Of a DNA stretch of 64,000 nt, positions 3 to 49,678 are shown in pieces. The notes under the pieces are model-generated. The model saw nothing but the letters and a program-made list of their open reading frames with translations, did no database searches and was not told the DNA's origin. The DNA is from Adhaeribacter pallidiroseus (GTDB lineage: Bacteria; Bacteroidota; Bacteroidia; Cytophagales; Hymenobacteraceae). The number at the start of each line of letters is the position of its first letter. Position 1 is the first letter of the stretch. Location of the stretch: contig NZ_QASA01000002.1 in the NCBI RefSeq assembly GCF_003340495.1, forward strand, positions 1 to 64,000, given 5' to 3'. The translations under genes were made by a program, and so were the position numbers.

Positions 3-278
3 TGGCGCATTGATGGAGAGCTTAGCCTGGCTAAAGTCATCACGTCGAGTAGTTCTTTTTCGTCCAATCGCCCGGGGATAGATCGGACGGTTTTGGCTAA
101 AGGCTTGTACCAGGTACTTGACCGGGAAGTGGGAGCGGCTTACCAGCAACACGGCTGGTTACCGACCCTCAACGTGTACCTGGTCTACCAATTATGTAGG
201 AGAAATAAGTACGAAAAGGTTGCTCTGTTAATCAATGCTAATAACAGAGCCAGATCAAACTTTTCTCACTTAACATAA
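3..278 (+). CDS. 3' end of an unidentified protein (partial)
   Basis: The frame is open from the left window edge to a stop at 276-278, about 91 codons, with an internal ATG at 93. I do not recognise the product. The residues are soluble-looking with no membrane segment. The gene probably begins outside the window. Its stop is within a few bases of a dif-like XerCD site, so the open frame could simply run into a recombination boundary. It may also be a chance frame. Confidence 0.3.
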   Translation, partial: WRIDGELSLAKVITSSSSFSSNRPGIDRTVLAKGLYQVLDREVGAAYQQHGWLPTLNVYLVYQLCRRNKYEKVALLINANNRARSNFSHLT

Positions 279-294
279 CGTACTTATCGGACAG
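268..294 (-). other. dif-like XerC/XerD recombination site (site A)
   Basis: Read on the minus strand the site is a XerC-type arm (CTGTCCGATAA), a short centre and a XerD-type arm (TTATGTTAAGT). The XerD arm differs by one base from the arm TTATGTTAAAT of E. coli dif. The centre is 5 bp rather than 6, or one base has been lost from the XerC arm. It is weaker than sites B and D but has the same layout and orientation. Confidence 0.45.
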
Positions 295-299
295 GTAAT

Positions 300-590
300 T
301 TATTCCTTAGGTATTTCAATGTAAAAAGTAGTGCCTTTATTTTCCTGGCTTTCAAACTAAATACGGCCATCGTGTAATTCCACGATATTCTTGATGATGG
401 ACATACCTAAGCCGACACTTTTTTCTCCCCGAATACCGGGACGACGGGCTTTGGTGAATTTATCAAATAAGGTAGCTTGTACAGATTCCGGATACCAATG
501 CCATTATCGGCTACGGTGATAAAGATCGTAGATTCCCGCTCCTCTAGGGTAAGGGCAATGGTACCCTGATCAGGCGTAAATTTAATAGCA
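300..590 (-). pseudogene. histidine kinase C-terminal ATPase fragment
   Basis: The reverse strand encodes a HATPase_c segment (NAIKFTPD, then DNGIGIP, then GEKSVGLGMSIIKNIVELH) that ends in PKE. It is almost the same as the C-terminus of the intact kinase at 22864-23955. Everything upstream of NAIK is missing: no HisKA or sensor part exists. It also has an in-frame TAG where the intact copy has Trp (near 356-358) and a one-base deletion near 490-495. This is a dead remnant of a duplicated kinase, truncated at the junction with the response-regulator remnant next to it. Confidence 0.8.
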
Positions 591-595
591 TTAAA

Positions 596-938
596 ATATT
601 GTTGGTAGATGATGATGCTACTGCTACTTTCTTAACCCAAAGAACGCTGAAGAAATCCGGGATTGGAGTAGATGTTTTAACGGCTGCTCAGGATTAGAAG
701 CCCTACAAATTGTAAAGCGCGTATGTCAAGAGGAAGAATGTCCGGAATTAATTCTACTGGACCTGAATATGCCCGTTATGGATGGTTTTGAATTTCTAGA
801 CGAACTTCAAACATCGGCCGATTTAAGTAGTGCGGATATCAAGATCGTATTGTTAGTAGTTTCAGACATCACATGGATCTGGTCCGGGCTAATAATTACC
901 CGGTAATTGATTGTATTGAAAAACCGCTAACTACATAA
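596..938 (+). pseudogene. response regulator receiver fragment
   Basis: The plus strand encodes a CheY-like receiver starting at KILLVDDDAT and containing the phosphoacceptor motif LILLDLNMPVMDGFEFL and a C-terminal lysine motif EKPL. It is similar to the intact receiver proteins at 21470 and 21984. There is no start codon, and the frame is broken near 690 and again near 865. The 5' end abuts the truncated kinase fragment on the opposite strand, so one deletion or rearrangement probably created both ends. Confidence 0.75.
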
Positions 939-1100
939 CGGCACTTAATTACTTGTTAATAGCAAAAGAATCTATATAAATTAATATGTATTGATAACTT
1001 AATAGCTAAATTTGAAGATCACATTTTTAGAGTCAGCTGATAACAAAATTAAGTTTTGGATCTGCTTCATATATACCTTTTACTCTCACTCAACTAACTT

Positions 1101-1958
1101 ATGCAATCTTCAACCATTTCTTCTTGAAGAAAAAGAAAAAACAAATTTTGGAAGCCTGGATGAACAATCAGCTGGCGGACGCTACCTTCGGGAAGATTTA
1201 ATTTCGAATGACGATCTCCAAACCCCAATCCGAGGACTTACTAAATGCCCTTTAAAGGCATTAAATATGGGTACCACAGATTTAGAAGCAGAATCTTTAC
1301 AACCAGTTATTGATATATTAAGTGACTTGTCCATTACTCGGGCGCGCCAAGGCTTTACGCCTCGGGAAACTAGCCTCTTTGTATTTAGTCTCAAAAAAAC
1401 CTTTAACCAGATTTTACAACAAGAGCTAAAGGATAATTTTCAACTACTTTATCAGGAGACTATTGAGATAAGCAATATGCTTGATAGTTTGAGTATTGTC
1501 ACCACGGAAACTTTTATCAAAGGAAGAGAAGAGGTTATTTTAAGGCAAACCGATGAGATCAGTGAAATTTCTACCCGGTGATTCGGGTGTGGGAAGGCAT
1601 TCTAGCTCTACCCATTATTGGTACCCTGGATAGCGCCCGCACCCAGGTTGTAATGGAAAACTTGCTGGAGAAAATTGTGGAGACCGGTAGCCGGATTGCT
1701 ATTCTGGATATTTCAGGCGTACCCGCGGTTGACTCCTTGGTTGCGCAACATTTAATCAAAACGGTAAGTGCCACCCGCCTGATGGGGGCAGAGTGCATTA
1801 TCAGCGGTATCCGCGCCGAGATTGCCCAAACCATAGTGCACTTAGGTATTGATCTTTCTAATATCCATACCAAAGCCTCCTTAGCCAGTGCACTTAAATT
1901 AGCTTATAGCATGCTGAATATAGAAGTACGTCGGGGCGAAAAGAAATTTCAAGGTTAG
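1101..1958 (+). pseudogene. rsbR: RsbR-like stressosome protein, frameshifted
   Basis: RsbR proteins form the stressosome core with RsbS and hold RsbT until stress. The N-terminal part shows RsbRD-type sequence in pieces across three frames (ILEAWMNNQLAD, LREDLISNDD, QSEDLLNAL). The C-terminal STAS domain is in one frame from about 1578 (LALPIIGTLDSARTQ, LDISGVPAVDS). The break at 1573-1577 is repaired by one added C, and about four more single-base losses are needed between 1118 and 1255. A continuous frame at 1012-1581 arises only because these shifts partly cancel. The start chosen is the ATG at 1101, which gives a typical RsbR N-terminus. Confidence 0.75.
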
Positions 1959-1966
1959 ATATTGTC

Positions 1967-2363
1967 ATGGATAGAATACCCATTCTGAAAATGGCGAGTT
2001 TTTACTCGTAACCATCCAGGTCGATTTATACGATCGCCTGGCTTTAACCTTGGAAAGTGATTTAATGAATATGGTCAGTCGCACGGAAGCCCGGGGCGTA
2101 CTGATTGATATTTCGGCGGTAAGTATCGTTGATTCTTTTATGGGGCGCATACTGGGCAATATTGCTTCTATGTCTAAATAATGGATGCCGAAACAGTAGT
2201 AGTAGGCATGCAACCGGCAGTAGCTATAACCTTAGTAGAATTAGGTTTAACCTTGTCCGGGGTACATACGGCTTTAGACGTAGAGATGGGGATGGAACTT
2301 CTTCGTAAAAAAATTGGCCCTACACCAACCGACGAGGAAGATCTCTATGATGACATTATCTAA
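1967..2363 (+). pseudogene. rsbS: RsbS-like STAS protein, frameshifted
   Basis: This is a single STAS-domain anti-sigma-factor antagonist, the RsbS partner of RsbR. The reading is MDRIPILKM, then GEFLLVTIQVDLYDRLALTLE, then the conserved phosphoserine segment SIVDSFMGRIL, then [17 protein letters not shown]. Two one-base deletions break it, one in a G run near 1991-1995 and one in an A run near 2173-2177. Repairing both restores a protein of about 132 residues, the normal RsbS length. It begins 8 bp after rsbR and overlaps rsbT, so it belongs to the same operon. Confidence 0.78.
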
Positions 2364-2759
2364 GGAAAACTTCGAGATAAAGCGGGAGCCCGATGTCATT
2401 TTGTACCGGAACCGAGCGAAAGAATTAGCGGCCAAAATTGGCATGAGTCTAGTGGGGCAAACGAAGCTTATTACCGCCGCTAGTGAACTGGTGCGCAACA
2501 TGCTCCGCTATGCCGAGGGGGGAACGGTACCATAGAAGTAGTTGTTAGAAATAACATTAAAGGTATCCGGCTAACCTTTGCGGATAAAGGACCTGGCATC
2601 AAAGACTTAAAATTAGCCATGCAGGATGGATTCTCAACGGGGCGCAGTTTAGGCTTAGGCTTGCCCGGAGCAAAGCGCTTATCCAACGAATTTGATATTA
2701 AAAGCGAACCCGGAAAAGGAACCACGGTAACGATCATACGCTGGAAGAATGGATTATAA
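2347..2759 (+). pseudogene. rsbT: RsbT-like serine kinase (GHKL ATPase), frameshifted
   Basis: RsbT phosphorylates RsbS and RsbR and, once released, switches on a downstream phosphatase or kinase. Motifs seen: SELVRNMLRYAEGG (N box), FADKGPGIKD (G1 box), GRSLGLGLPGAKRL and a KGTTVTI ending. The frame breaks near 2529 where one A is missing; adding it restores about 137 codons. The start overlaps the end of rsbS and the stop overlaps the start of the next gene, which is typical translational coupling of stressosome operons. Confidence 0.78.
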
Positions 2760-3773
2760 CTTGCACGTGCGGTTTGAATTGGTAGATCGAAGTTTTGTAA
2801 ATATCGTAAAAAGGGATATTACTAAACTGGCTAGCAGTTTTGGGCTTTCGGAAGTAGAAATCGGCAAAGTTAATATTGTCATTGCCGAAATGGCCAGTAA
2901 CTTGATTAAGCATACGCCAAAGGGGGGGAGATTCTGGCCAAACCGATAACCAATGAAAATCAAATTATAGGCATTGAAATACTTTGCTTGGACTTAGGGC
3001 CTGGGATGTCGGATCCCAAGCGAATGCTGGAGGATGGCACTTCTACTTATGGTTCCCGGGGAGAAGGCTTAGGCGCGATTAAACGCGTAGCCGACGAATT
3101 TGATCTTTACTCTCGCCGGGAGTCGGGGACGGTGCTTTTGGCCCGTTTGTATAAGAAAGGTCAGAAACCCAAAGCGAGTCAACGCAGTAAATTTGACTTC
3201 CACGCGGTCATGGTAGCCAAACCGGGTGAATCCGAATGCGGTGATGGCTGGACCATGGTGCAACAAAACGGGGTTTGTCAAATTCTAGCGGTTGATGGTT
3301 TAGGTCATGGGGAGAATGCGCACATCGCTGCTAGTGCCGCCGTAGCTTCTTTTCAAAAGCAAACGCCCTCTCCTCCCGGTATGCTGCTTCGGAAAATACA
3401 CAGCGATATGCTCAAAACCCGGGGCGCAGTGATGAACGTTGCCAGTATTGACCTGAAAAGTAATACGCTCACTTATTGCGGAGTAGGTAATATCGCGGGC
3501 CGAGTCTTGGCGTCGGATGGAGCAAAAAGTGTGATGTCTTACAATGGCATCGTGGGGCATAATCTGCCTAATACCATTAATGATCATCAAATAGTCTGGA
3601 ACAATACGCAGATTTTGATCTTGCATTCCGATGGTTTAAAAAGCCGGTGGGATTTGACCAAATACCCGGACTTGCTGCAACACGATACCAGCATCATTGC
3701 GGCGGTAATTTATAAAGAATTTACCCGAAAAACGGATGACACCTTAGTGCTGGTGGGCCGAACCCGTCCCTAA
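2749..3773 (+). pseudogene. anti-sigma-type ATPase fused to SpoIIE/PP2C phosphatase, frameshifted
   Basis: The N-terminal about 130 residues are a HATPase_c_2 (RsbW/RsbT-like) domain with EMASNLIKHT and DLGPGMSD. The C-terminal about 200 residues are a SpoIIE/RsbX-like phosphatase (VDGLGHGENAHIAASAA, HSDGL). RsbX-type phosphatases reset the stressosome by dephosphorylating RsbR and RsbS; here the phosphatase is fused to a second ATPase. The break is in a seven-G run near 2926-2932, and one added G joins the two halves. The gene overlaps rsbT and is joined to the kinase gene by a TAATG overlap. Confidence 0.75.
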
Positions 3774-5121
3774 TGAAAATGAAAAAGGAAGTTATTAAAA
3801 TAAAGATAGAAAACGAGCTAGACGTGGTTTTAGCCTACAAACGATCCATGCAATTAGCGGGATTTTGTGGCTTACCGATGGCTGGGCAGACGAAATTTGC
3901 TACTGCTGTATCGGAAATTTGCCGCAATGTATTAGAACACGTGGGTCACGGTCAGATTGGGTTTAACCTTATAGAAAATAAAGGACGATTATTTTTAGAG
4001 GCGTTGATCAGTGATCGGGGCCGGGGCATTGCCAACGTCGAAGAATTGTTAGCGAACCATTACCGGCCATACTCTAGTAAAGGCTGGGTATCTATAATTC
4101 TAAGAAACTGGTAGAACAATTGTTTATTGAAAGTGATAGTGAAAAAGGAACCCAGGTGAAGCTGCATAAAGCCATCCCTCATAACCATCCGCCCATCAAT
4201 AATGCTATCATACAAGGCTGGATTCAACATTTTGCCAGCGAAGCAAGCGTTTCTCCCTACGTAGAGATAAAAAATCAAAACATGCAGCTGCTAGAACTAC
4301 TCGACCAGCTACGATTAAAGAATATGGAAGTGGAGCATCAGTTAACCGAAATTCAAAATTTAAATACGCAGTTACAAGCTTCTAATCACGAGATAACCCA
4401 ACTATTACAGGAACGAAATTTAGCTAACGAGCAACTTACGGCTATTAATCAAGAGCTTGATAAATTTGCTTACATCATCTCGCATGATTTAAAATCTCCC
4501 TTATTTAATATTTTATCCTTAACGAGTATTATAAGCGAGGATTTAGAGGAAAATAACTTTACAAATGTAAAGAAGTCCATCGGGATGGTACTGGGCCAAG
4601 CCAAAACCATGGATAAATTTATTACGGATGTATTAGCTTATTCCAGCATGGGACGGCATACCATTAATAAAAATAGAGTAGATTTAGGAGAGTTGTTACC
4701 GCAAATTATTAGCTTTTTAAACGGGCCAGCTCACATTAAAATCGAAGTAACTGAAAACTTACCCGTTCTGTTTACCGAAGAAATTTACCTGCAACAGATT
4801 TTTACCAACTTACTTAGTAATGCCATTAAGTACAATGACAAACCGGACGGGTTGATTCAAGTAAGCTGCCAGCGGGTAGATTCCTTTCTGCAAATATCTG
4901 TTGCTGATAATGGGCAAGGCATTCCTTTGGAGGATCAAAATAGGATCTTTGAAGCTTACCAAACAGGTAGCCGGCACCGCAATTCCAGCACCGGATTAGG
5001 GTTGTCTATTGTTAATAGAATTATGCAGTTAAAGGGCACCGCTATTTGGGTCGAATCAACGGGTAGGAATGGCACCGTTTTTCATTTTACTTGGCCGATT
5101 GCAGAACTGGTTTTATCCTGA
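3773..5121 (+). pseudogene. GHKL ATPase-histidine kinase fusion, frameshifted
   Basis: The first about 110 residues are a RsbT-like ATPase (SEICRNVLEHVGHG, DRGRGIAN). They are followed by a long coiled coil (about residues 170-225), a HisKA domain with the phosphoacceptor FAYIISHDLKSPL, and a second HATPase_c (NAIKYND, DNGQGIP, STGLGLSIV). One base is missing near 4083-4090 (SSKG to LGIYNSKKL). If intact, one polypeptide would carry two GHKL ATPases and link stressosome output to a phosphorelay. It is the last gene of the operon. The soluble architecture suggests it is activated by protein partners rather than by a ligand. Confidence 0.7.
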
Positions 5122-5309: not shown

Positions 5310-5458
5310 GTTGACCAAACTCGTCTCACGAAACGACGGAAAAAAGATATTGAAAAGACCTGGTTACACTAGGTCTTTTTTGCTGTATATCCAATCTCAA
5401 AGGATCATCTCACAAATCAAAACCATTTTTGCATTTATTAGACGGTATTCGTGAGATA
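5310..5458 (+). repeat. intergenic repeat element, copy 1
   Basis: Conserved parts in order: TTGACCAAACTCGTCTC, the core CTCACGAAACGACGGAA, a hairpin with T-tract (5353-5379), ATATCCAATCTCAAA, then an ATCTCAC/GTGAGAT pair about 35 bp apart. Related copies lie at 16665-16799 (minus), 44250-44385 (plus) and 54151-54283 (minus), with a core-only piece at 41994-42029. This copy lies between the kinase operon and the serine recombinase. Confidence 0.7.
5353..5379 (+). terminator. hairpin with T-tract inside repeat copy 1
   Basis: The arms AAAAGACCT and AGGTCTTTT enclose a 9-base loop and are followed by further T residues. It could end transcription of the stressosome/kinase operon, although it lies about 230 bases after the last stop codon. 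Confidence 0.65.
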
Positions 5459-6610: not shown

Positions 6611-8661
6611 ATGAGTAGCTTAATCATAAATAGGTTAAAATATAAGATTTCAATAGAACAGTTTATTTTGGCACTAAGTGTTAAGCAACCATTATTGTTC
6701 TCTAAAAATGCAGATTTTCTGTTCAGTAAAATTGCCAATAATGACTTTGAGAACATTATCTTTCATTTAAAGCAACAACTACCAGAAGTTCATGATAATG
6801 CAAAGTCTAAAGTATATTTTGATTTCAATAACTCACATACTCCTGATACTTACTTTAAAAAATTAGACATAAAGTATTTAGAATTACCATTTTTAAGGAG
6901 AGCTTACATTAAAAAAAAATTAATAGAGATTTTTTCGTTAAAAAATTTCTTAATAGAGCCTTTTCCTACAGGTGTAGATCTTGCAATTTTTCAAAAAACA
7001 AATAATTATAACTCAGAATGGGCTATTTATACTAGATTTGATGTTGTAATATTTCCATATGAAAATGAAATATCATTAAGTATCGGAAGTACTGATACTC
7101 TAATAAGTAATATTAAACATGACTTTAATAGTGAAGTTGATCATTTAAAAATAGTAGATTCAGAAGATGGATTCATAAAAAGAGCAAAATTCAACATTGG
7201 AAATCAAAATGGATTAATTATAGCAAATGCAGACAAAAGAAAACAATTAAATATTAGAAATAAACCTCAAAAATATTTTTATCAAAATCATTTTAAAACT
7301 ATTAATGACATCTATTCTATACTATTAAATGAATCTGATAATGAGAATGGATTACGATTTGAGAGTGGAGGATTCAAAACAGTGCATCCAGCTGATGTTG
7401 ATCAAGTGGATTTTGATAAAAACCAAATACTATTTGGTAAGGGCTTGACTGACGTTAATGCGGCAAGTGGAATGCGAGATGGTGGGCCTTACGAGGTGCC
7501 AAATGGAATAGCAGACAATTTAAAAATTTTATTTATTTATCAAAATAGAGAACAAGCTAACAATCTTTTTCATATATAAAGCAAGGTTATAAACATTATC
7601 CAGGATTATTGAGCTATGCTGGTATTTCTGTGAACATTGCTAATGAAAGATTGCAATATTCAAACAAAGAATCTTTATTAAATGAATTCAATAATTTTAT
7701 AAATGGCGTACTGACAAATGAATCATATGCGGATTACTTTGCATTGGTAATTTTACCTTTCTCAAAAGAATCTGCAGATTTATCAGATAACAAATTATAT
7801 TATTTAATAAAAGAAAAACTTTTAAAAAAAAGTATTGCTTCGCAATCAATAGATAGTACAAAAATAAACGGAGCAAATTTTCATTATCATCTTCCTAATA
7901 TTTCTGTTGCCATTTTAGCTAAAGTTGGTGGCATACCTTGGAAACTTAAAAGAAAACCATATAATGAATTAGTTGTTGGTTTTAATGAAGAATATTTTGA
8001 AGAAAATCTTGTTCTAGGAACTGCTGTCTATTTTGATAATAGTGGAAAGCTTAGGCATGTTAAATCCTTTAATGGCAATAATAGAAATGACTTAATAATT
8101 GCTTTAAAGAACTCGATTCAAAATTTTTTAGAAGCTAACCAAAATAATCCTCCGGATCGACTAGTCATACATTACTATAAACCACCTCGCAAAGAAGATG
8201 TAGATAGGATTGATAAGTTGATTAGAGATGAATTCAGGTTTAATCTTCCTTTTGCATTGATAGAAGTAAATGATACAAAAGTAAGTACAGATATATGTTT
8301 TGATGTAAAGTTTAATTACGGGATGCCCATTAGTGGAACTTTTGTTAGATTAAGAAAAACTAGTAACGAGTATCTGTTATTCAATAATCAAAGATACTGG
8401 AAAAATCCACTTAAACCAATTAGTGCAGAGGAGTATCCTATCAAAGTTAAATTGTATAATACTGAAACTGGGGGTTTTAGCCATAAAGAGCTACTGAGTC
8501 AAGTTTATGAGTTTTCTAGATTGTATTGGAAAGGACTTAAACAAAAAAGTCAACCTGTGACAACTCAGTATTCAAAGATGATTGCTGAGTTTGCAGTACA
8601 TTTTGAAAATGGTAGGATTCCTGAAAACCGAATTTCACAAAAAACAGCTTGGTTTATTTAA
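6611..8661 (+). pseudogene. catalytically inactive long prokaryotic Argonaute (MID-PIWI), one frameshift
   Basis: Argonautes use a guide strand to find invading nucleic acid. About 683 residues are restored by adding one T to the run at 7566-7570; otherwise it reads as 322- and 350-residue parts. The first half has N/PAZ-like regions and the second half MID and PIWI. The PIWI core is recognisable from KVGGIPWKL, LVVGFNEEYFEENLVLG, RLVIHYYKPPRKED and the ending PVTTQYSKMIAEF. The catalytic Asp positions are lost: VGFN replaces VGID and VIHYY replaces VIHRD, so no slicing is expected. The next gene starts 1 bp later and encodes SIR2. This matches the long-B Argonaute/SIR2 type, in which the Argonaute senses and the SIR2 protein depletes NAD+. 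Confidence 0.8.
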
Positions 8662-8662
8662 T

Positions 8663-9942
8663 ATGGATATTAAACAAGCTATAGATAAAAGCCTATTTAT
8701 ATTTGGAGCTGGTGCTTCCTATGATGCTGGTTGCAAAATGTCAGGAGATATGCTGAAAGCGTTGACTGAAATTATCTGCTTGAATCAGGAGGATCCTTTT
8801 ACAGAAATCGAAAGAGAAACCATAAAGTTTTTACTTACTTGTTTAAATTATCATTCAGAATGGAAAACTTGGGAAGTAAATAGAGAATATTCATTGCAGC
8901 CTAATATTGAAGAATTAGCACTTTTAATCAGAAGAATAAAGAACCGAGATAATTTTTTACCTTATCCTGTAACTGGTAATTGGGCTGATAAACTTCTTAG
9001 ATTAGAAGCTCAATTCAAAGAGCAAAATAAGTTTGGCCTTTATCATAAAATTGAAGATACAATTAAAAATAAGCTTATTCCCCAATGGCTTGAAGTTAAA
9101 CAAACAGATTTCTTAAAGCCACTTGATGATTTCTTTCAAAGAAATACAGATAAAAGAATAACCTTTGATATTTTTTCTATGAATTATGACAAGGTAATTG
9201 AACAACATTTTTCTGAACAAAAAGCGAAGCCATATAGAGGATTCTATAGTGGCGAATGGAGAGGATTTAATGTGTCTGATAGTATTGATGAATTTAATAT
9301 TATTAATTTATACAAATTACATGGGTCATTAGATTGGACCAGGCTTATAGATGGAACTGTTTTAGAAAAATCTGATATTGATGAATATTACGAAGATATC
9401 GAAGGAGAAAATAGAATTGAACATGATCCAGTTATAATATTTGGGCATGGCACAAAGTTTTTTCTGTAGAACCTTTTTTCAGCCTAATTCAAAATTTTAG
9501 CAATAAATTAAAAGAAAGAAATTACTTTTTTATTATTGGCTATAGTTTTTTTGATCCATATATAAATAATTTACTTATTCAAGCTGTAAAAGATGGTGGT
9601 TATAAAAACAAAAAGATCATCATAGTAAATCCATCTTTTGCATTTAATCCACCCTTAAAGGTAGATCATTTTATAGATCATGATCTGTATGGTTGCCATC
9701 TTAATGAAAATAACTCAGAAGCAAAGAAAATCCTAACTAATTACATAGAAGATATACAACGGAATGCTTTTTATTCAGAATTGCCTGAATTCAACATCAA
9801 ACAAGTTCCATCCGAAGCTTTATATTATTTAAGAATGGGTACAAAAGAATTCTTTAATCGTTTTTTTAATAATTCAGGTGAGGCTTTTTTAAAGCTTATT
9901 GAAGATTTTGAAAGTCAAGGTGAGAAGTCTTTACCATTCTAA
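8663..9942 (+). pseudogene. SIR2-like NADase effector of the Argonaute system, one frameshift
   Basis: The N-terminus carries the SIR2 nucleotide-binding motif FIFGAGASYDAGCKMS, followed by SMNYDKVIEQHF and KLHGSLDWTRL. After one added T in the run near 9456-9461 the frame continues with the SIR2_2-type segment FFIIGYSFFDPYINNLLI and KKIIIVNPSF, giving about 427 residues. Sirtuin-like effectors of defence systems hydrolyse NAD+ and stop growth of the infected cell. There is no APAZ domain, so this is not a short-Argonaute fusion. The ATG at 8663 is 1 bp after the Argonaute stop, so the two are co-translated. Confidence 0.8.
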
Positions 9943-9987
9943 GATATTTATTACTAATTATGTAAAAGCTCTAGAAGAGTTAAAAGA

Positions 9988-11100
9988 ATGCCAATAGAAA
10001 GTGTTTACATAGAAAATTTTAAATCCATTCGTGATAGTGAGAGAATATCAATTAAGCCGATTAATATTTTAATTGGGCCTAACGGAGTGGGGAAAAGTAA
10101 TTTCATCAGTTTTTTTAAATTACTTAACAGCATTTACCAACAAAGACTTCGTAAATATGTAGCAGATAATGGGTATGAAGATCGTATTTTATATTTTGGC
10201 CGTAAAGTATCTGAATATCTAGCAGGGGGCATTGTTTTTAAACCAAATGATAATAATGTTAATAACCGATATGATTTTAAGTTAGTACCACAAGCTCAAG
10301 ACAGCGGATTCTATTTTGAGGAAGAAACAGCTGGTTATAATGTCTTCGCTTATCATTACGGTGAAAAATGGCATTACATGGATTTAGATACTATTGGTAA
10401 ACCTGAAAGCAACTTAAAAGACCACGGGGCAGATCGCAGTTTTTACCTAAGTAATTATTTTGAGGACTTTAAAGTATTTCACTTTCACGATACGAGTGCA
10501 AATTCCTCTTTGAAGCAAGTAGCAAAAACGCAGGATTACGCTTATTTGCGAGAAGATGGCAGTAACTTAGCTGCCTATCTGTTTAAAATCAAAGATACTC
10601 ATCCCAAACATTTTAGAATGATTGAGCACACCATTCGTTCAGTGGCGCCGTTTTTTGATCGGTTTAATTTAAAGCCTGATGCTAAAAACGAAAACGTAAT
10701 TTTCTTAAACTGGTTAGAAAAAGGGTCCGACGAATATTTTAATGCACATAATCTATCTGATGGTACTCTGCGCTTTATTGCTTTAACTACTTTATTACTA
10801 CAACCAGATATTCCAAAAACCATTATAATAGACGAGCCAGAATTAGGATTGCACCCTTTTGCCATTCAGAAACTAGCCGCTATGATAAAAAGTGCTTCTT
10901 CTAAATCACAAATAATCGTTTCTACTCAATCGGTAAACCTGGTAGATGAATTCTCTGCTGATGATATTATTGTAGTAGACCGAAGGGACAACCAAACAGT
11001 ATTTACCCGTCAGTCGGAGGAAAGTCTTCGTGAATGGCTTAAGGATTACACCTTAGGGGAGCTTTGGGAGAAGAATGTATTGGGAGGTCGGCCCAGATGA
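9988..11100 (+). CDS. AAA/ABC-type ATPase, PARIS AriA-like
   Basis: A RecF/OLD-like ATPase of 370 residues. Visible are the Walker A motif GPNGVGKSN (about residue 30), an ABC-signature-like LSDGTLRFIAL, the Walker B motif TIIIDEPELGLHP and a switch segment STQS near the end. The next gene is a DUF4276 protein that overlaps by ATGA. ATPase plus DUF4276 is the make-up of PARIS, in which AriA holds the toprim nuclease AriB until a phage anti-restriction protein is sensed. As I recall, the characterised AriA is longer, so this is a compact relative. The start is the ATG at 9988, 45 bp after the SIR2 gene. Confidence 0.75.
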   Translation: MPIESVYIENFKSIRDSERISIKPINILIGPNGVGKSNFISFFKLLNSIYQQRLRKYVADNGYEDRILYFGRKVSEYLAGGIVFKPNDNNVNNRYDFKLVPQAQDSGFYFEEETAGYNVFAYHYGEKWHYMDLDTIGKPESNLKDHGADRSFYLSNYFEDFKVFHFHDTSANSSLKQVAKTQDYAYLREDGSNLAAYLFKIKDTHPKHFRMIEHTIRSVAPFFDRFNLKPDAKNENVIFLNWLEKGSDEYFNAHNLSDGTLRFIALTTLLLQPDIPKTIIIDEPELGLHPFAIQKLAAMIKSASSKSQIIVSTQSVNLVDEFSADDIIVVDRRDNQTVFTRQSEESLREWLKDYTLGELWEKNVLGGRPR

Positions 11101-11759
11101 GAGGACTATACATTTTAGCCGAAGGACCTACCGAAGAAGAGTTTATCAATGAAGTGCTCAGTCATTATTTTTATGATAAAGGCATATATGATGTAAGGGC
11201 AATTTTAATGAGCACTAGCCCTGGTTTTAAAGGAGGAGATGTTACTTACCAACGTTATAAGCTAAATGCCGAAAACCTATTAAAACGGGAACAAGATATA
11301 ATTGTAACTTCTTTAATTGATTATTTCCGATTACGAACAGATTTTCCGGAATATGCTCAAGCCCAAACTATAATTGACAAATATAAACGAGTTGATTTTT
11401 TGGAAAATGCTGTAGCTAACGATATTAATAGCCACCGTTTTTTGCCTTATATTCAATTGCATGAGTTTGAAGGATTATTATTTTCCCATACGGCTGGGTT
11501 TGATTATTTGCCTGATTTATCGGACGCAAACAAGCAACAATTGTACAGCGCTGTACAGGAACATGATAATCCGGAAATGTTGAACGATGGAGCTGAAACA
11601 GCCCCATCTAAACGATTGGAAAAACTTATCCCAGGGTACAAGAAGACCTTACACGGTCCAGTTATCGCTACTGAAATATCACTTTCCATTATTATGCAAC
11701 GCTGTATTCGGTTTAATAACTGGATTCAGGCTTTAACCCAAAGAATGCAGCAAAATTAA
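11097..11759 (+). CDS. DUF4276 toprim-like protein, PARIS AriB-like
   Basis: 220 residues. The DUF4276 pattern is clear: LYILAEGPTEEEFINEVL (toprim-type acidic motif) at the start, SLIDYFRLRTDFP in the middle, then RFLPYIQLHEFEGLLFS. In PARIS this subunit is the released nuclease that causes abortive infection. The start chosen is the ATG at 11097, which overlaps the ATPase stop by 4 bp; an upstream in-frame TTG at 11064 is less likely. The acidic residues expected for metal binding are present, so it looks active. Confidence 0.8.
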   Translation: MRGLYILAEGPTEEEFINEVLSHYFYDKGIYDVRAILMSTSPGFKGGDVTYQRYKLNAENLLKREQDIIVTSLIDYFRLRTDFPEYAQAQTIIDKYKRVDFLENAVANDINSHRFLPYIQLHEFEGLLFSHTAGFDYLPDLSDANKQQLYSAVQEHDNPEMLNDGAETAPSKRLEKLIPGYKKTLHGPVIATEISLSIIMQRCIRFNNWIQALTQRMQQN

Positions 11760-11904
11760 TGAAACTATCCAATTTAGTGAATACTTACAGATTGATCCTA
11801 ATAAAATGGGGGTCTGGTACTTCAACCTGCTATGGGTGAACCCCAATTAAAGTATTTCATATTATTCTGATTCAGAAATAGTTTTGATAAAGCTTCAAAA
11901 CATA

Positions 11905-12162: not shown

Positions 12163-12218
12163 CAAGAGGTTCATTTTACATTATAAATTAAGCTACCGTT
12201 CACAGAAAAAATTAAGAA

Positions 12219-33628: not shown

Positions 33629-33663
33629 TAGTAAATAGAGTTTATAGGTTGATTGATAATAAG

Positions 33664-34430: not shown

Positions 34431-34434
34431 ATAA

Positions 34435-41993: not shown

Positions 41994-42029
41994 ATCTCAC
42001 GAAACGACCGTTTTCTTGAGATTGGATAA
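41994..42029 (+). repeat. core-only fragment of the intergenic repeat
   Basis: ATCTCACGAAACGACCG, then TTGAGATTGGATA. It matches the core of copy 1 (CTCACGAAACGACGG) but lacks the hairpin and distal part. Confidence 0.45.
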
Positions 42030-42084
42030 AGCCATTTTACATATTCTTACGTATAGGCCTACCTAGATATCATGTGCCGGCTTT

Positions 42085-42528
42085 TTATTCTTCAAAATTA
42101 TCGTAATAGGTAAAGTCTTTAACGATTTTTCCATTTTCAATTGTAAAAATTGTGCATATTGGAAGTTCCAATTTAGAATCATCTGGCGCGGTTCCGCTCG
42201 ATACAAATTCCACAATAATATGGTTTTCGCCTGATGGGTATACCTGGATAACATCATCTTTCAAATCAGGAAAAGCTTCATTTAATTCACTATACTTTTG
42301 AGCAATCTGTTCACGCGTCTGTTTTACAATTCCTTGTCCAAGGGAAGGGTCTTTAAACGCAGTTGTTTCTGAATACATTTCCGCCATCTTCTCCCAATCG
42401 TGGTTGTTAAAATGTTCAAAGTACTGCTTTACTACATCCATGTTTTTAGTGTCCATTGTTAGTTGGATTTGGTTGTTACAAGAATTCAACACTACTAAGA
42501 TGACTAAGATTATCAGGCTTTTTTTCAC
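42085..42528 (-). CDS. SnoaL/NTF2-like lipoprotein
   Basis: 147 residues. The signal ends in LVVLNSC (lipobox Cys at residue 17). The mature part has the cone-shaped NTF2/SnoaL pattern: VVKQYFEHFNNHDWEKMAEMYSE, then FPDLKDDVIQVYPSGENHIIVEFVSSGT, then ENGKIVKDFTYYDN. SnoaL-like proteins bind or isomerise small hydrophobic molecules; the substrate is unknown. Single gene, not in an operon. Confidence 0.85.
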   Translation of the reverse strand: MKKSLIILVILVVLNSCNNQIQLTMDTKNMDVVKQYFEHFNNHDWEKMAEMYSETTAFKDPSLGQGIVKQTREQIAQKYSELNEAFPDLKDDVIQVYPSGENHIIVEFVSSGTAPDDSKLELPICTIFTIENGKIVKDFTYYDNFEE

Positions 42529-43090
42529 TGGTCGGTCAGCTTAAACTATTTATTGAAAAGGCAGTTTCCGCATTTTGTTTTATTAGAATACCAATATGAA
42601 TACTAGCAGATAGCTAAAGTAATTCCGGTTACTTGCATTATGGATGGAGAGTTGCCGAAGGCCTATTCTGCGAACCAATTTTTTACTGGAGTAGTGGCGG
42701 CTCTCTTGCTCCTTCTTTGGCCAATTTAGTGAATGCTTTTTTAATTCCAGCGGCCAGCGGGAGCTCCGGGCTATTCCGGGTGTTTTAACTACTGCTAGTG
42801 CCAGACCTTTACTTTGTTTTCCTTTCCCTTACATATAACGAAAGACAGAAAACGACCTTTATTGAATATAATAGTGGGTATACCTTTTTGTAAAGCAGTC
42901 CGCGAAACTTGATTATGTAAAATTAAGAAGTATAGTAATCTCCTTCTATTTTCAGCAGTTATAATCGGTATAAAATAAAAGTAGATAATCGGCGTCCTTA
43001 CCTCGTATTCGGCTAAGTATATTCTTAAAGGAAGATATTTAAAGCCGGAAAAGCTACGGACTGCTCGTTTGTTCTTGTACAAAAAAATCC
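42529..43090. other. intergenic region without a clear gene
   Basis: 562 bases. A 95-codon minus-strand frame (42795-43082) is AT-rich with no family resemblance and is probably spurious. No terminator is obvious. Confidence 0.4.
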
Positions 43091-44008
43091 TTATGTTTTT
43101 CGCCGGAAAAGCCCGATAACGCTGGCGATTAACACCAGGCCAATTGCCAGCTTAAAGAATACTTTACGGGGAGAAGTTCGTTGAGTGCTTTGGGCCGGTA
43201 AACCACCCAATAGCAATTCACCATTAATTACTGCTAGCACTAGGCGCACTGTTTGGGTAGGGGCATCCCACTGGGGAAAGTGGCCGCAATCATTAAACCA
43301 ATGCAGGTGAGCGTCGGGAAAAGCAGCTAAAGCCCGCGTTGCTTGCCGGGGAAGACAAACCCGGTCCTGCCGGCCCCAGCCAATGACCAATGGTTGCTTA
43401 ATGGTTCCCGGAGGAACCCCTTGTTGTCGCTCTCCGTGAGCTAATTGGTCTAAGAGTTCATCAAAAGAAGGGGAGCTGGCAAAAGTGCGCATTTCGTCGC
43501 CTACTAAGGTAGCCGGTAATTGCCAGGGACGAGCAGAAAACTGAGCTAATAGGGCCGTACGGCCAATGGGGTTTCCCAAGAGGGTTGGCATTATCGGTTG
43601 CAATAACCGCACTAGGCGCACGGAAGTAGCCACTGAATAATAAAAAAAAGGTACTTCCCAGCCCCGCCAAAATCCGCCGGGGTCCAATGAAACAACGGCG
43701 CCTACTATTCCCCCGCGTCGAGCTAGCTCTAGTACCAGGCGAGCACCCATGGAACTACCTACCGCATCAATACCCATTAAATCCTGTTTTTGCAGAAAAT
43801 CTGTAACGGCATCCGCCAGCGTACGGATAGATACTTCCCCTCGCAAGGCCGGGGTAGCCCCGTGGCCCGGTAAGTCAACGGCAATAACTTGCCGACCCGC
43901 TTCAACTAGGGCATCCAGGATCAGATGCCAAGAACGCGAGCTACCGCCAATTCCGTGAATAAGTAATAGCGGCTTACCGGTGCCGCGGCGAATGCAGTGC
44001 ATATCCAT
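43091..44008 (-). CDS. alpha/beta hydrolase with C-terminal membrane anchor
   Basis: 305 residues. The oxyanion region is LLLIHGIGGSSRSW, the nucleophile elbow is VGSSMGARL, the acid Asp lies in GWGRQDRVC and the catalytic His in NDCGHFPQWD. The fold is that of the AB-hydrolase_1 family; the substrate is unknown. The last about 30 residues (VFFKLAIGLVLIASVIGLF) form one hydrophobic helix followed by RRK, which suggests a tail anchor. It stands alone. Confidence 0.88.
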   Translation of the reverse strand: MDMHCIRRGTGKPLLLIHGIGGSSRSWHLILDALVEAGRQVIAVDLPGHGATPALRGEVSIRTLADAVTDFLQKQDLMGIDAVGSSMGARLVLELARRGGIVGAVVSLDPGGFWRGWEVPFFYYSVATSVRLVRLLQPIMPTLLGNPIGRTALLAQFSARPWQLPATLVGDEMRTFASSPSFDELLDQLAHGERQQGVPPGTIKQPLVIGWGRQDRVCLPRQATRALAAFPDAHLHWFNDCGHFPQWDAPTQTVRLVLAVINGELLLGGLPAQSTQRTSPRKVFFKLAIGLVLIASVIGLFRRKT

Positions 44009-44508
44009 AAGATATTGGAATCAGGAGCTATGGCGTAATAGCTTAGGACTATTTACGGAGTTAGGGACAGTCAAGTTGGTGTAGCCGTTGATTAGCGCAG
44101 GGAAGGACCATTACTAGGAAGGGTCTTTTTATTGCAGTCGATAAACGATGGTCCTATTAAGTCATTATTCTCCTTTAAAGTTACAATGTTAGTTTATTAA
44201 CTAGCTTGATGGTAAGTAGCCATGCTTTGTCTGTCTTGTCCAGATATAGGTTGACCAAAATCATCTCTGGAAACGACAGAAAAAAGCGATGAAAAAATTG
44301 GTATTATTTACCTGGTTTTTTTATTGAAAAAATATCTCAAATATCCATCTCATGAATCAAGGATACAATTTGATTTATGAGATGGAATTAATGAAATTGG
44401 TATACGATTTTTGTATACCAATTTGCGCTATAGGATTATTTATACCTGAGACTTTAAAGTATTGCTCTTCCTAACTATTGGAAACTTACGAATAGGTATA
44501 TAGCAAAT
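44009..44508. other. intergenic region holding repeat copy 2
   Basis: 500 bases between the hydrolase start and the higA stop. It contains the repeat element at 44250-44385. Otherwise only AT-rich sequence is seen. Confidence 0.45.
44250..44385 (+). repeat. intergenic repeat element, copy 2
   Basis: GTTGACCAAAATCATCTCTGG, core GAAACGACAGAAAAAAG, a hairpin with T-tract (AAAAAATTGGTA/TACCTGGTTTTTT), ATCTCAAATATCCATCTCA, then a CATCTCAT/ATGAGATG pair. Same order as copy 1 with a different hairpin sequence. Confidence 0.7.
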
Positions 44509-46012: not shown

Positions 46013-46028
46013 TTCTTCCTGAACCATC

Positions 46029-46614: not shown

Positions 46615-47664
46615 CTATGTTAAGAGAGTAAAATTGAAATTGATATTATCAATTTCGTAGACACCTACTTTTATACATTCAAATTTTTCCGGATTAAAAA
46701 TGGCTAAATTATATCCTTGAGAATATAAAGAACTTTGGAACATAACACCATCATAGCCAATAGACTTTATATATTCTGATAAATATTGAGTAGGTAAATA
46801 ATCTAATTCATTATCATCCCGACGTTTTGGTTTGGATAGAGTTGATTCCAGTTTAGAAATAAAAGGAAGATGAATCAAAAAATCTTCTAAATCTTCTTTT
46901 TCCGCTAAAACAATTGGGTCGTAGGAATTACCTCTTAAATTTATTACCTTAATATCCTCCTTAAGTCTAAAATCTCCAATTGCTACATAGTCAAATAAGG
47001 AGGCTCGTGCTTCATATAAGGTAGTGGTAACCTGATCCGCTAAATAAAGATATGATATCCCTAAAGGATTAGCTCGACCTGATTTAGTTCTATCAGCAGG
47101 AGGGTGGCCCATTTCTGAAATAGAAAACCCATCTTTGGAGGATATGCGGGCTCGATAAAATTTGCGTCCTTTAGTTATAGGATTTTCATAGCGGCTTAAT
47201 AGAACTTTAAGCTTCTCTAAGTCCATTACATTCTGTAAATGAAATCTATTTACAGATTTTATCTCGTCAGCAAATCTTTCCCAAGTAATTTGAAGGGGTT
47301 TAACCGTTTCATCATTGCTGGGATTATTAATACAGCTTAAAATTACTGGATTATTAAATATTTCTTGGTAACTAGTAAAATCATCCGCAATTATTTCCTG
47401 TAGTAATTCTTTTATATTTTTATTGACCTTACTAGAGAATATCTTATTAGTAAAGTCTTTCTCAATTTGAAAATCAATAGGAGACCCCTTTTCATTGATC
47501 TCGTATAAATTTAGAATGTTTTGAAAGAAGAAGTTTAGTTCACGAGGGTTGTATATTAAAACCTCTTGAGATTTGCAATAATCGCAATTACCGGTAGTAG
47601 AAGTATTACGGTGAATAATATCCTTCAAATATGGATTGGAAAAGCACTCCGAACAACAATTCAT
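46615..47664 (-). CDS. HEPN/RES-type NTD plus RES domain protein
   Basis: 349 residues. The N-terminus has two CxxC pairs (CCSECFSNP, CDYCKSQ), a zinc-knuckle-like module seen in RES proteins with a HEPN-like N-terminal domain. The C-terminal half is a RES domain: Arg in FYRARIS, MGHPPADR, SGRANPLGISYLYLA, Glu in LYEARA and Ser in FQSS. RES toxins degrade NAD+ (ADP-ribosyltransferase-like fold). The start at 47664 lies 1 bp after the sce7725 gene, so three genes are translated together. The usual RES partner (a Xre antitoxin) is absent. Confidence 0.82.
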   Translation of the reverse strand: MNCCSECFSNPYLKDIIHRNTSTTGNCDYCKSQEVLIYNPRELNFFFQNILNLYEINEKGSPIDFQIEKDFTNKIFSSKVNKNIKELLQEIIADDFTSYQEIFNNPVILSCINNPSNDETVKPLQITWERFADEIKSVNRFHLQNVMDLEKLKVLLSRYENPITKGRKFYRARISSKDGFSISEMGHPPADRTKSGRANPLGISYLYLADQVTTTLYEARASLFDYVAIGDFRLKEDIKVINLRGNSYDPIVLAEKEDLEDFLIHLPFISKLESTLSKPKRRDDNELDYLPTQYLSEYIKSIGYDGVMFQSSLYSQGYNLAIFNPEKFECIKVGVYEIDNINFNFTLLT

Positions 47665-47665
47665 T

Positions 47666-48610
47666 CTAAATCAAACCAATAACTAATTCGATATGATTCA
47701 TTACAGAAAGTTTTTTAACGCTTCCTAATCCAGGGAAATGACCGTTACTATGAAGTTCCTTGAATTCTTCTATTGCTCTAGTATTAAGAGAACTAGTTTT
47801 GCTCCAGTATATTAATTTATTTAGTGCCTCCTCAAATTTCCCACCGATATCAGAAGTGTCCATATTAGAATCTGATACAAAATGTTTAACCCTGATTTTT
47901 TTTGTCGAATCAGCATAAGATAAGTGAATTGCAATTGCAAAAGGAAGGAATCCACCATCAGAATAATTATCACCAATCGTTAAAAAATCGGAGAAACCCT
48001 TGTATCCATCATTTTTATAAAATAAATGTTCCTCAGAAAATTGACTTTCCCCAATCGGCAAATAATCAGAATTCTTTTGCTGGCAGCAGAAAAAATCATC
48101 CAGAGTAACTAATGTAGCAGAGTCAAAATTTCTATAATAACGTCGATTTGTTTTTCCAGAATTAATTATATTATTAATAATTGGTAATTCACTTTTATCT
48201 TCAATTATGGTTAAAATATTTTTTATGTTGTCATTAACAGAGTTATGTATTAAGGTTACTCCCGAACAAGATAATTTATGGTCCCGGACCAAATCTCTGT
48301 AAAATCTAACATCTTTGCTTTCATCAATAATAATTGCCATTTGGTAATTAGAATATCCATTAAGCTCCTTGTCCAGTAATTCCATTATGCCTGCAGAAGA
48401 ACCAATCAAGTCACCAACAACGGGGTTGATAATAACATTAAAGTTGATTTCTTCGCGACTTAATTCCGACAATACTTTTTTTAAAGTAGGAGAATTTTTT
48501 ACTGGCTCAATAATTGGAGAAACTTTGGTATTATTCCCAGCCAAAATATCTCGGATTTCTCGGAGAGCAATTAGTTCAAACTGTTTACCCCGGATATAAG
48601 GAAAATACAT
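47666..48610 (-). CDS. sce7725-family (beta family) protein
   Basis: 314 residues. The family signature is the start YFPYIRGKQFELIALREI followed by a TIM-barrel-like middle region (NVIINPVVGD, GVTLIHNS). No catalytic motif is clear. Proteins of this family are typically found beside sce7726, as here. The start lies 1 bp after the sce7726 stop, and the stop 1 bp before the RES gene. A sensor or scaffold role in an NAD-depleting system is inference. Confidence 0.7.
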   Translation of the reverse strand: MYFPYIRGKQFELIALREIRDILAGNNTKVSPIIEPVKNSPTLKKVLSELSREEINFNVIINPVVGDLIGSSAGIMELLDKELNGYSNYQMAIIIDESKDVRFYRDLVRDHKLSCSGVTLIHNSVNDNIKNILTIIEDKSELPIINNIINSGKTNRRYYRNFDSATLVTLDDFFCCQQKNSDYLPIGESQFSEEHLFYKNDGYKGFSDFLTIGDNYSDGGFLPFAIAIHLSYADSTKKIRVKHFVSDSNMDTSDIGGKFEEALNKLIYWSKTSSLNTRAIEEFKELHSNGHFPGLGSVKKLSVMNHIELVIGLI

Positions 48611-48611
48611 G

Positions 48612-49478
48612 CTAGATTATTTCATTTAAGAAGTTGTATAGGTCTGAATATTCCTTTTCTGAAAAGTCCATTGTGTAACAGATATGCTTTAGTTCATAAG
48701 GAGTATGGTCTGACATTAGCAATTCAGGGCACCTAATTTTTCTGCCTTTTAATTGATTGAATGCCATTTCTTGAAAATCTACAACATTTATCTCTTTTGC
48801 CAAAGAAAAACACTCTCTAAATATCTTAGTACTTGGGACCTCCGGAACTTCACCAAAATAATCTTTTATGATTTCTAGGTATTCTGCTTTGCGAAGAGTT
48901 TTAAAAATAATAGCATGATCAAAATTTTCCCTATTTACCTCTGCCTCCTTAAGTGTATTTAAATTTTGATTATGTGTGAATTCAATAATACCAATGGCTG
49001 TACTATTATACTTATCTAAAAGCTTATCTGTATGTTTTGAGCAGGAAACTATATATACTTTATCGGCGAATTGGGTATAATCAAATACTTGTTTTTCTAA
49101 TTTTGCTAGACTATCTAAATCTGTTTTAATTTCAAATACACGAGCCTCACCATTCAATAAGACAAAGTCAGCAATGGAGCCGCCAATCTTAAATTCATTT
49201 AATACAGAAGTGGTATTTAGACTGTATTTGCCTAACAGTTGATTATTAAGAAGAGCATTTTTATAAAAGTATTCGCAGCGGTATGTATCATGTAATTCTT
49301 TATATAAGAATTGAAGGATATAATTATACGATTCAGAAAAATCAGCATTGATGTGCTTTTTAATACTGTAACGAATAAATTTATGATCCTTCTCCCTTAC
49401 AATTTTATTGAAGATAGAAGGTGTAAAAATTTGAGATAAACTTCTTAAGCAGCCTGTGCTCTTCTGTATGACATACAT
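48612..49478 (-). CDS. sce7726-family protein, PD-(D/E)XK nuclease-like
   Basis: 288 residues from the ATG at 49478. The segment SIADFVLLNGEARVFEIKTDLDSLAKLEKQ gives Asp, then Glu-x-Lys, the PD-(D/E)XK pattern, followed by VYIVSCSKH. The rest is helical. It is the first gene of the three-gene operon. A -7-like TACCTTTG (complement at 49485-49492) lies directly before the ATG, so the message may be almost leaderless. No -33 TTG is evident. Confidence 0.72.
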   Translation of the reverse strand: MYVIQKSTGCLRSLSQIFTPSIFNKIVREKDHKFIRYSIKKHINADFSESYNYILQFLYKELHDTYRCEYFYKNALLNNQLLGKYSLNTTSVLNEFKIGGSIADFVLLNGEARVFEIKTDLDSLAKLEKQVFDYTQFADKVYIVSCSKHTDKLLDKYNSTAIGIIEFTHNQNLNTLKEAEVNRENFDHAIIFKTLRKAEYLEIIKDYFGEVPEVPSTKIFRECFSLAKEINVVDFQEMAFNQLKGRKIRCPELLMSDHTPYELKHICYTMDFSEKEYSDLYNFLNEII

Positions 49479-49650
49479 TTTGGGCAAAGGTAATAAAATC
49501 TTCCGTTTTCCTAATTTACGTAAATATTAACAGTAATATAACAGAGTTAGAAAATTAATCATTCCAATATTTAAATATTAGGCTCTTAACTACTGCTTAG
49601 ATACCTAAAAATAATTCTAAACAAATTACTTTTATAAAATTTAAGTTCCT

Positions 49651-49678
49651 ATTTAACATAATAGTAGTTATCAGGACA
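49651..49678 (-). other. dif-like XerC/XerD recombination site (site D)
   Basis: XerC-type arm TGTCCTGATAA, centre CTACTA, XerD-type arm TTATGTTAAAT (identical to the E. coli dif arm). It differs from site B at only two positions over 28 bp and shares flanking bases. It lies 173 bp beyond the start of the RES/sce7725/sce7726 operon. Confidence 0.65.

What the first reader, a model, noticed from the sequence alone, without database searches (positions are those of the whole stretch)
268..49678. Four dif-like XerC/XerD sites that divide the window into modules
Sites at 268-294, 13495-13522, 37163-37190 and 49651-49678 share an 11-6-11 layout and a XerD-type arm like TTATGTTAAAT, the same as E. 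coli dif. Sites B and D match at 26 of 28 positions and have similar flanks. All four lie between genes. A and B bracket the stressosome/defence segment; D lies beside the RES/sce7725/sce7726 operon; C is inverted. Together with the nearby rep and par genes this looks like pdif-type modular exchange on a plasmid, which I know mainly from Acinetobacter and not from Bacteroidota.
Basis: partly seen in the sequence, partly recalled or inferred. Interest (0 to 1): 0.8.

Follow-up and report, generated by a model that had tools for sequence, protein, structure and literature searches.

The report
XerC/XerD site-bounded modules on Bacteroidota plasmids
This soil-bacterium plasmid seems to be put together from DNA blocks that meet at short copies of the chromosome's own dimer-resolving site, a block-swapping scheme known mainly from Acinetobacter, and it also carries a second, different set of probable swapping sites.

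Summary
The four sites are real and above chance. The window is part of a circular 74.4-kb Adhaeribacter plasmid (P1) whose contig was left untrimmed: window 1-28772 is repeated at the contig end, and site A's odd 5-bp spacer is 6 bp in the other copy. P1 has seven candidate sites (A-D, a doubtful one at 36417, E and F beyond the window); a sister plasmid (P2, 35.3 kb) has four. The chromosome has one exact match, intergenic and near a GC-skew sign change: the likely dif. The six tyrosine-recombinase matches are chromosomal, among them a XerD and a XerC-like protein. In relatives, blocks of 1.3-27.5 kb stop at such sites (14 of 71 sites have an alignment end within 30 bp; 2.7 expected). Identical spacers are 8 times commoner than expected. 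E and F share a spacer, are inverted, and bracket a par-rep replicon. So pdif-type modular exchange is well supported for this genome and genus; for A, B, C and D themselves no clear breakpoint was found. None of 35 held papers with 'pdif sites' is on Bacteroidota by title. A second site family, probably for serine recombinases, also bounds blocks; one 2.3-kb cassette is 99.65% identical on P1 and P2.

The parts
268..294 (+). Site A (pdif-like, XerD arm to the left, XerC arm to the right); 27 bp as assembled, 28 bp (spacer CGGTAC) in the second copy of this stretch at C2:74682-74709
   Evidence: kinase remnant and stressosome locus start just inside it
13495..13522 (+). Site B, spacer TACTAG
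36416..36443 (+). Doubtful dif-like site, XerD arm ATTTTACATAA, spacer TTCAAC, about 25 bp from what looks like a decayed serine-type site (composite class)
37163..37190 (-). Site C, spacer TGTTCG; full type II element with conserved flanks on both sides (about 37081-37233)
49651..49678 (+). Site D, spacer TAGTAG, the same spacer as the P2 site at C3:17703-17730
300..5121 (.). Histidine-kinase remnant and stressosome-type genes at the A end of segment A-B; the stressosome locus is chromosomal in relatives
6611..13100 (+). Defence-type genes (Piwi, SIR2-like, AAA_21 + DUF4276, Shedu C-terminal) at the B end of segment A-B
32538..35079 (.). First replicon of P1: Rep_3 initiator (-) and ParA-like ATPase (+); a second Rep_3/ParA replicon lies between sites E and F beyond the window
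46615..49487 (-). RES / sce7725 / sce7726 operon ending 164 bp before site D; a relative (G009) carries it on a chromosomal stretch that also has a pdif-like site and DNA similar to a serine recombinase gene
42002..44277 (.). 2276-bp cassette (SnoaL-like + alpha/beta hydrolase) 99.65% identical to P2 23184-20909; the alignment starts inside a serine-type core (41994-42008) and ends at the last base of another (44263-44277)
5323..5337 (+). Serine-type site core, upstream of a resolvase-family gene (5679-6287)
54259..54273 (-). Serine-type site core

Best explanation
The sites are plasmid copies of the host dif site (pdif). XerC and XerD encoded on the chromosome pair two sites, one recombinase at each arm, and exchange strands at the edges of the 6-bp spacer. 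Sites with the same or nearly the same spacer recombine: direct pairs excise or integrate the DNA between them, inverted pairs flip it, and pairs on two molecules fuse plasmids. Over time this has built the two Adhaeribacter plasmids, and parts of chromosomal islands in relatives, from interchangeable blocks. Shown here: the sites, their excess, a likely chromosomal dif, chromosomal XerD and XerC-like genes, block ends at sites in the genus, recurring spacers, and a second replicon bracketed by an inverted same-spacer pair. Inferred: that XerC/XerD act on these sites, that spacer identity governs pairing, and that P1 arose as a fusion of two replicons.
For: Excess of sites. Likely chromosomal dif ATTTAACATAA TATATA TTATAGGACAA, intergenic; GC skew is +0.034 in the 20 kb before it and -0.009 in the 20 kb after; 10 of 295 other Bacteroidota genomes have one strict match each, with spacers beginning TAT. 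All six PF00589 matches lie on the chromosome; one passes the XerD cut-off (356.9 against 329.6 bits), one is best to XerC but below its cut-off (305.9 against 335.15). Block ends: P2 16436-17730 is 87% identical to an A. radiodurans chromosomal island and similarity stops at the end of the site in both; an A. swui plasmid block of 3.4 kb, 85% identical to another such island, runs from a serine-type site to pdif site 114017; a 27.5-kb block, 93%, shared by the A. radiodurans plasmid and G009_C2 stops at a pdif site in both, the G009 one with two mismatches. 14 of 71 sites against 2.72 expected. Pairs of sites with flank similarity are mostly one-sided: 31 XerC side, 11 XerD side, 7 both sides, of which 5 are overlap copies, overlapping sites or my mislabelled record; about 3 pairs per side are expected by chance at the threshold. 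Identical spacers: 30 pairs among 70 sites, 3.57 expected, maximum 11 in 2000 shuffles.
Against: No relative close to P1 was found, so no gain or loss at A, B, C or D was seen. Of P1's sites only F and A (alignment starting at 300; A was not in the counted site list because of its indel) have an alignment end beside them: at A it is also the end of a kinase remnant, and at F the relative's own site is about 260 bp away. Orientation does not alternate throughout (A, B, 36417 all +). In the P2 / A. radiodurans example the XerC arms are identical while the spacers differ, which a simple exchange at the spacer does not explain. Part of the one-sidedness of type II flanks is a threshold effect. One of 15 settings of the first alignment-end test was weak (at least 300 bp, 85%, 30 bp: 2 against 0.42, p 0.08), and alignment ends are not independent. 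Many dif-like sites of the 'AC' spacer class are tied to serine-type sites and may not be Xer sites.
Confidence: 0.8

Rival explanations
1. The sites serve only plasmid (and chromosome) dimer resolution by XerC/XerD; several copies per plasmid are remnants of plasmid fusions, not a working shuffling system.
For: Ten sites, chosen because they look alike, among them the likely own dif and one in G034, share a XerC-side flank (mean pairwise identity 0.73 over +1..+30, against 0.30 on the XerD side), as expected of a resolution site with an accessory sequence. P1 carries two replicons.
Against: P1 has up to seven sites and P2 four, with many different spacers; blocks without replication genes also end at sites (P2 16436-17730); chromosomal islands carry several sites; spacers recur between unrelated flanks. 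The shared flank is present at only 2 of 20 dif-like loci with TAT-type spacers that were fetched.
Confidence: 0.12
2. Module borders are made mainly by the second, serine-recombinase-type sites, and the dif-like sites are passengers at the borders.
For: Alignment ends fall within 30 bp of 10 of 19 serine-type sites (0.82 expected), a stronger enrichment than at pdif sites; the recent P1/P2 cassette ends at serine-type cores, not at pdif sites; 8 of 20 'AC' dif-like sites sit 25-26 bp from a recognisable serine-type site, against 0 of 69 others.
Against: Several block ends lie at pdif sites with no serine-type core recognised there (P2 17704, Arad 98762, G003_C2 29287); spacer recurrence and inverted same-spacer pairs are expected of Xer sites.
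Confidence: 0.08
3. Chance matches to an A+T-rich motif, or a repeat unrelated to recombination.
For: With 2 mismatches allowed the whole genome shows no excess (317 hits against 337 in the control).
Against: Exact matches are concentrated on the plasmids (8 of 9), eight genomes of the genus give 59 exact hits against 6 in the control (overlap copies counted), and alignment ends coincide with the sites.
Confidence: 0.01

Closest known systems
pdif sites and dif modules of Acinetobacter Rep_3 plasmids (PMC13141974, passages read; PMC6449649 and PMC5790767, search listing with abstract start only)
   Same: 28-bp 11-6-11 sites like the host dif, several per plasmid, no tyrosine-recombinase match on the plasmids, Rep_3 replicons, recurring spacers, a plasmid with two replicons, blocks ending at sites
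   Different: Host is Bacteroidota (Adhaeribacter); intervals between sites on P1 are about 0.7-23 kb; orientation does not alternate strictly; the second replicon is in a XerD-inward (D) interval whereas the Acinetobacter backbone is a C module; some sites have long conserved flanks, one kind shared with the likely own chromosomal dif; a second site family coexists
cer/psi-type plasmid dimer-resolution sites (recalled, not looked up)
   Same: XerC/XerD core with a conserved sequence on the XerC side (type I sites)
   Different: Many sites per plasmid with different spacers, and blocks ending at them
dif-integrating elements, such as Bacteroidetes microvirus proviruses (PMC3091885, passages read)
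   Same: Use of dif-like sequences by mobile DNA without its own integrase in Bacteroidota
   Different: Here whole plasmids are subdivided by many sites; this is not one element inserted at the chromosomal dif
Small serine resolvase sites (for the second family; general knowledge)
   Same: Short core with a variable 2-bp centre, in some cases just upstream of a resolvase-family gene (P1 by Pfam, Arad and G003_C1 by annotation; G003_C2 and G029_C2 by DNA similarity to those)
   Different: Cores bound cassettes found in different places; no test was made that a resolvase acts on them

Membership tests
pdif sites / dif modules | 28-bp site, 11-bp XerC and XerD arms, 6-bp spacer, similar to the host dif | tested here: met
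   B, C and D; A only in its second copy; likely host dif found
pdif sites / dif modules | Several sites on one plasmid, in excess of chance | tested here: met
   Seven candidate sites on P1, four on P2; shuffles
pdif sites / dif modules | Recombinase supplied by the host chromosome | tested here: met
   6 of 6 PF00589 matches on C1, none on C2 or C3; XerD above cut-off, XerC-like below cut-off; action on the sites not tested
pdif sites / dif modules | Sites alternate in orientation (C and D modules), fused CD modules being the exception (PMC13141974) | tested here: inconclusive
   C-, D+, E-, F+ alternate; A, B and 36417 are all +; P2 is -,+,+,-
pdif sites / dif modules | Blocks found in other contexts with ends at the sites | tested here: met
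   14 of 71 sites, base-level examples; not shown for A, B, C or D
[quoted passage not shown]
   Spacer recurrence and the inverted E/F pair fit, but no rearranged form was seen
pdif sites / dif modules | Rep_3 family replicon | tested here: met
   P1 two, P2 one Rep3_N match; nearest NCBIfam model repM_Acin, far below its cut-off
cer/psi-type dimer-resolution site | One site per plasmid with an adjacent accessory sequence (recalled) | tested here: not met
   P1 and P2 carry several sites; type I flanks were seen on relatives' plasmids and the own chromosome, not on P1 or P2

The most novel reading that the evidence does not exclude
Adhaeribacter plasmids are shuffled by two site-specific systems at once: host XerC/XerD at pdif sites, and serine recombinases at a second family of short sites that bound cassettes. 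The two kinds of site can be coupled in composite elements at a fixed spacing of about 25 bp, and a single block can have one end at each kind (A. swui plasmid 2, 110634-114038).
Probability: 0.4. Interest if true: 0.8.

Novelty: new variant of a known kind. Interest (0 to 1): 0.62.

Why it matters
If right, modular plasmid assembly with borrowed dimer-resolution enzymes is not an Acinetobacter speciality: it works in a distant phylum, moves stress-response and defence genes, and links plasmids with chromosomal islands. It would give a second, independent lineage in which to learn what pdif modules need, and why some sites keep long conserved flanks.

Tried and rejected
Megablast of three stretches (window 1-25000, 25001-50000 and C2 60001-75000; P1 50001-60000 was not searched) against the plasmid collection found no relative close enough for a gain/loss comparison. 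Blastn of the type II element around site C and of the chromosomal dif flank found Adhaeribacter swui plasmids and one weak match in a Listeria record. A phylum scan with a strict pattern (296 genomes, own included) found single matches in 10 other genomes and no second multi-site genome; the pattern was strict, and the family scan shows multi-site genomes in a second genus group. The idea that the 2276-bp P1/P2 block moved at pdif sites was dropped: its ends lie at cores of the second site family. The idea that site A has a natural 5-bp spacer was dropped. The ATATGT sites in G029 were taken as chance and removed before the counts, as were overlap copies of G009_C2, and one palindromic partner; possible contig-end copies of one G014 site were not removed. 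Searches used the uncleaned list. In one search a record meant to be the chromosomal dif was by mistake another locus holding a P2 site; it adds one 'both sides' pair, which I do not count. The first form of the composite-site count was recounted at fixed spacing.

Literature. Searches: 141 papers, 20 listed; 132, 40 listed; 21, 15 listed; 77, 20 listed; none on plasmids by title; 17 listed; 35 listed; 20, 15 listed. Of the 35 with 'pdif sites', 34 name Acinetobacter in title or listed abstract and one is on Proteus mirabilis. Items touching Bacteroidota in the listings were Microviridae proviruses, a Flavobacterium phage and a study of large replicons; I saw none on plasmid modules. Passages were read of PMC3025954, PMC3091885, PMC13141974 and PMC13342612; of all others only listings. 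Preprints and most subscription journals are not held, so novelty is not proven.
Full report
What was checked. The four reported sites are in the sequence at the reported coordinates. The window is the first 64 kb of contig C2 (103,146 bp) of a 6.43-Mb genome in three contigs. C2 and C3 look like circular plasmids left untrimmed: C2 74414-103146 repeats C2 1-28772 at 99.7% with 76 gaps, and C3 35267-66047 repeats C3 1-30786. I call the units P1 (74,413 bp) and P2 (35,266 bp). Site A has a 5-bp spacer in the first copy and a 6-bp spacer in the second, so its odd length is best read as an assembly indel. The few DNA matches in the plasmid collection are to Adhaeribacter (none).

The sites. Read as XerD arm, spacer, XerC arm, P1 has A (+, CGGTAC), B (+, TACTAG), a doubtful site at 36417 (+, TTCAAC), C (-, TGTTCG), D (+, TAGTAG), E (-, TAGGGG, C2 66626-66653) and F (+, TAGGGG, C2 72680-72707). 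P2 has sites at 1151 (-, TACCAG), 17704 (+, TAGTAG), 24405 (+, CAGTCG) and 28583 (-, CACTGG). Against 300 dinucleotide-preserving shuffles: P1 exact 3 (0.003 expected) and with one arm mismatch 6 (0.17); P2 2 (0.010) and 4 (0.09). Twenty chromosomal stretches totalling 400 kb, which by design leave out the dif core, hold none. In the genus (8 genomes) the exact pattern gives 59 hits against 6 for the reversed control, overlap copies included. With two mismatches the genome shows no excess, so only strict sites mean anything.

The host site and enzymes. The single exact chromosomal match, C1 2123160, is intergenic and reads ATTTAACATAA TATATA TTATAGGACAA. Of 20 sampled stretches, GC skew is positive in the three before it and negative in the six after it; stretches at 1.6 and 4.3 Mb break the wider pattern. 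Many genomes of the same family have the same XerD arm with spacer TATAAA, and in a phylum sample 10 of 295 other genomes have one strict match each, with spacers beginning TAT. I take it as dif; function was not tested. All six tyrosine-recombinase-domain matches are chromosomal. One passes the XerD model; one is nearest to XerC but under its cut-off.

Breakpoints. I fetched plasmid contigs or parts of them from relatives, 21 sequences and 1.33 Mb together with P1 and P2, and compared all with all. Of 71 strict sites, 14 have the end of an alignment of at least 200 bp within 30 bp (2.72 expected, maximum 8 in 300 shifts); for alignments of at least 1000 bp, 9 (1.05 expected, maximum 5). A first form of the test on the uncleaned list agreed in 14 of 15 settings and was weak in one (p 0.08). 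Base-level examples: P2 and an A. radiodurans chromosomal island share about 1.3 kb (87%) that runs to the end of site P2:17703-17730 and stops; the arms match almost fully, the spacers differ. A. swui plasmid 2 and another A. radiodurans island share 3.4 kb (85%) from a serine-type site to a pdif site. The A. radiodurans plasmid and G009_C2 share 27.5 kb (93%) that stops at a pdif site in both, the G009 one with two mismatches. For the window's own sites the evidence is thinner. Similarity to the stressosome region of G019 and G034 begins 5 bp beyond site A, but that is also the end of a kinase remnant. The RES-sce7725-sce7726 operon beside D is found on a chromosomal stretch of G009, but its end there is not at a site. 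F has an alignment end 10 bp away, with the relative's site about 260 bp off.

Site types and spacers. Three kinds appear. Type I sites share a XerC-side flank with the likely own dif; for ten such sites, chosen for it, mean pairwise identity is 0.73 over the first 30 bp on the XerC side, 0.47 over the next 30, and 0.30 on the XerD side. Similarity of 1.2-1.6 kb on the XerC side joins several of them. The flank is not general: of 20 fetched dif-like loci with TAT-type spacers and enough sequence, 2 have it (the own dif and one in G034). Type II sites (ten on the plasmid set, among them C and two P2 sites) have conserved flanks on both sides; half elements that switch at the core also occur (G014_C41 387 on the XerD side, E 0.0015; G019_C24 on the XerC side, weak, E 0.03). 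The third class has a spacer ending in AC: at a fixed distance of 25-26 bp, 8 of 20 have a recognisable serine-type site (at most 12 of 25 letters differing) against 0 of 69 others, so their nature is open; site A belongs to this class by spacer but has no such neighbour. Identical spacers occur in 30 pairs of 70 sites (3.57 expected, maximum 11 in 2000 shuffles); a few pairs may be contig-end copies of one G014 site.

Two replicons. P1 has one Rep_3 initiator with a ParA-like gene in the window and a second ParA-Rep_3 pair between E and F, whose spacers are identical and inverted. This fits a fused plasmid with an invertible replicon block. It is inference.

A second system. P1 42002-44277 and P2 23184-20909 are 99.65% identical over 2276 bp; the alignment begins inside one 15-bp core GTCTCNNGAAACGAC (one mismatch in it) and ends at the last base of another. 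Nineteen such cores with up to one mismatch lie on the fetched plasmids; 10 have an alignment end within 30 bp (0.82 expected, maximum 4). Some stand just upstream of a resolvase-family gene. The pattern without its first base occurs 26 times in eight genomes, overlap copies included, against 3 in the control. I think serine recombinases act there; no test was possible.

Comparison with the known. Defining features of Acinetobacter dif modules were taken from passages of PMC13141974. Arms, number of sites, chromosomal enzymes, Rep_3 replicons and block ends are met; strict alternation is not, and actual rearrangement could not be tested. I therefore call this pdif-type modular exchange in Bacteroidota, a new variant of a known kind. 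Among 35 held papers with 'pdif sites' none is on Bacteroidota by title; for most only listings were seen.

Noticed in passing
window 41994-42008, 44263-44277, 5323-5337, 54259-54273; P2 6044, 20909, 23178: Second family of short sites (GTCTCNNGAAACGAC, some with one mismatch), probably for serine recombinases, bounding a 2.3-kb cassette that is 99.65% identical on P1 and P2.
   Followed up: partly
window 36416-36443 and sites in relatives: 8 of 20 dif-like sites with a spacer ending in AC have a partly decayed serine-type site at a fixed 25-26 bp, against 0 of 69 other sites: a composite element of unknown function.
   Followed up: partly
window 1-28772 (= C2 74414-103146): The contig was not trimmed at its circular overlap; the two copies differ by many small gaps, so frames and spacers in this stretch should be read from both copies.
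   Followed up: yes
L001 and plasmid contigs of relatives: The likely own dif and a site on several relatives' plasmids share a XerC-side flank with an inverted repeat, possibly an accessory sequence; most fetched dif-like loci of other genomes lack it.
   Followed up: partly
L146-L152 (chromosomes of G003, G009, G024): Chromosomal stretches of relatives carry pdif-like sites, in several with serine-type sites and DNA similar to the plasmids: probable integrated or exchanged plasmid blocks.
   Followed up: partly
window 1012-5121: Stressosome-type genes are on the plasmid here; in six relatives the matching locus lies on a chromosome or a larger contig, and this genome's hit list shows no comparable chromosomal match.
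   Followed up: no
G009_C2 6173, 48064, 151790, 177497; G009:C1 5395132: Repeated elements begin with the same TGGCTGTTGCACAAC end one or two bases from the serine-type core, as if an insertion sequence targets these sites.
   Followed up: no
L118 1453-2469 (-), chromosome: Third tyrosine recombinase, 338 aa, best NCBIfam match integron integrase but below its cut-off.
   Followed up: no
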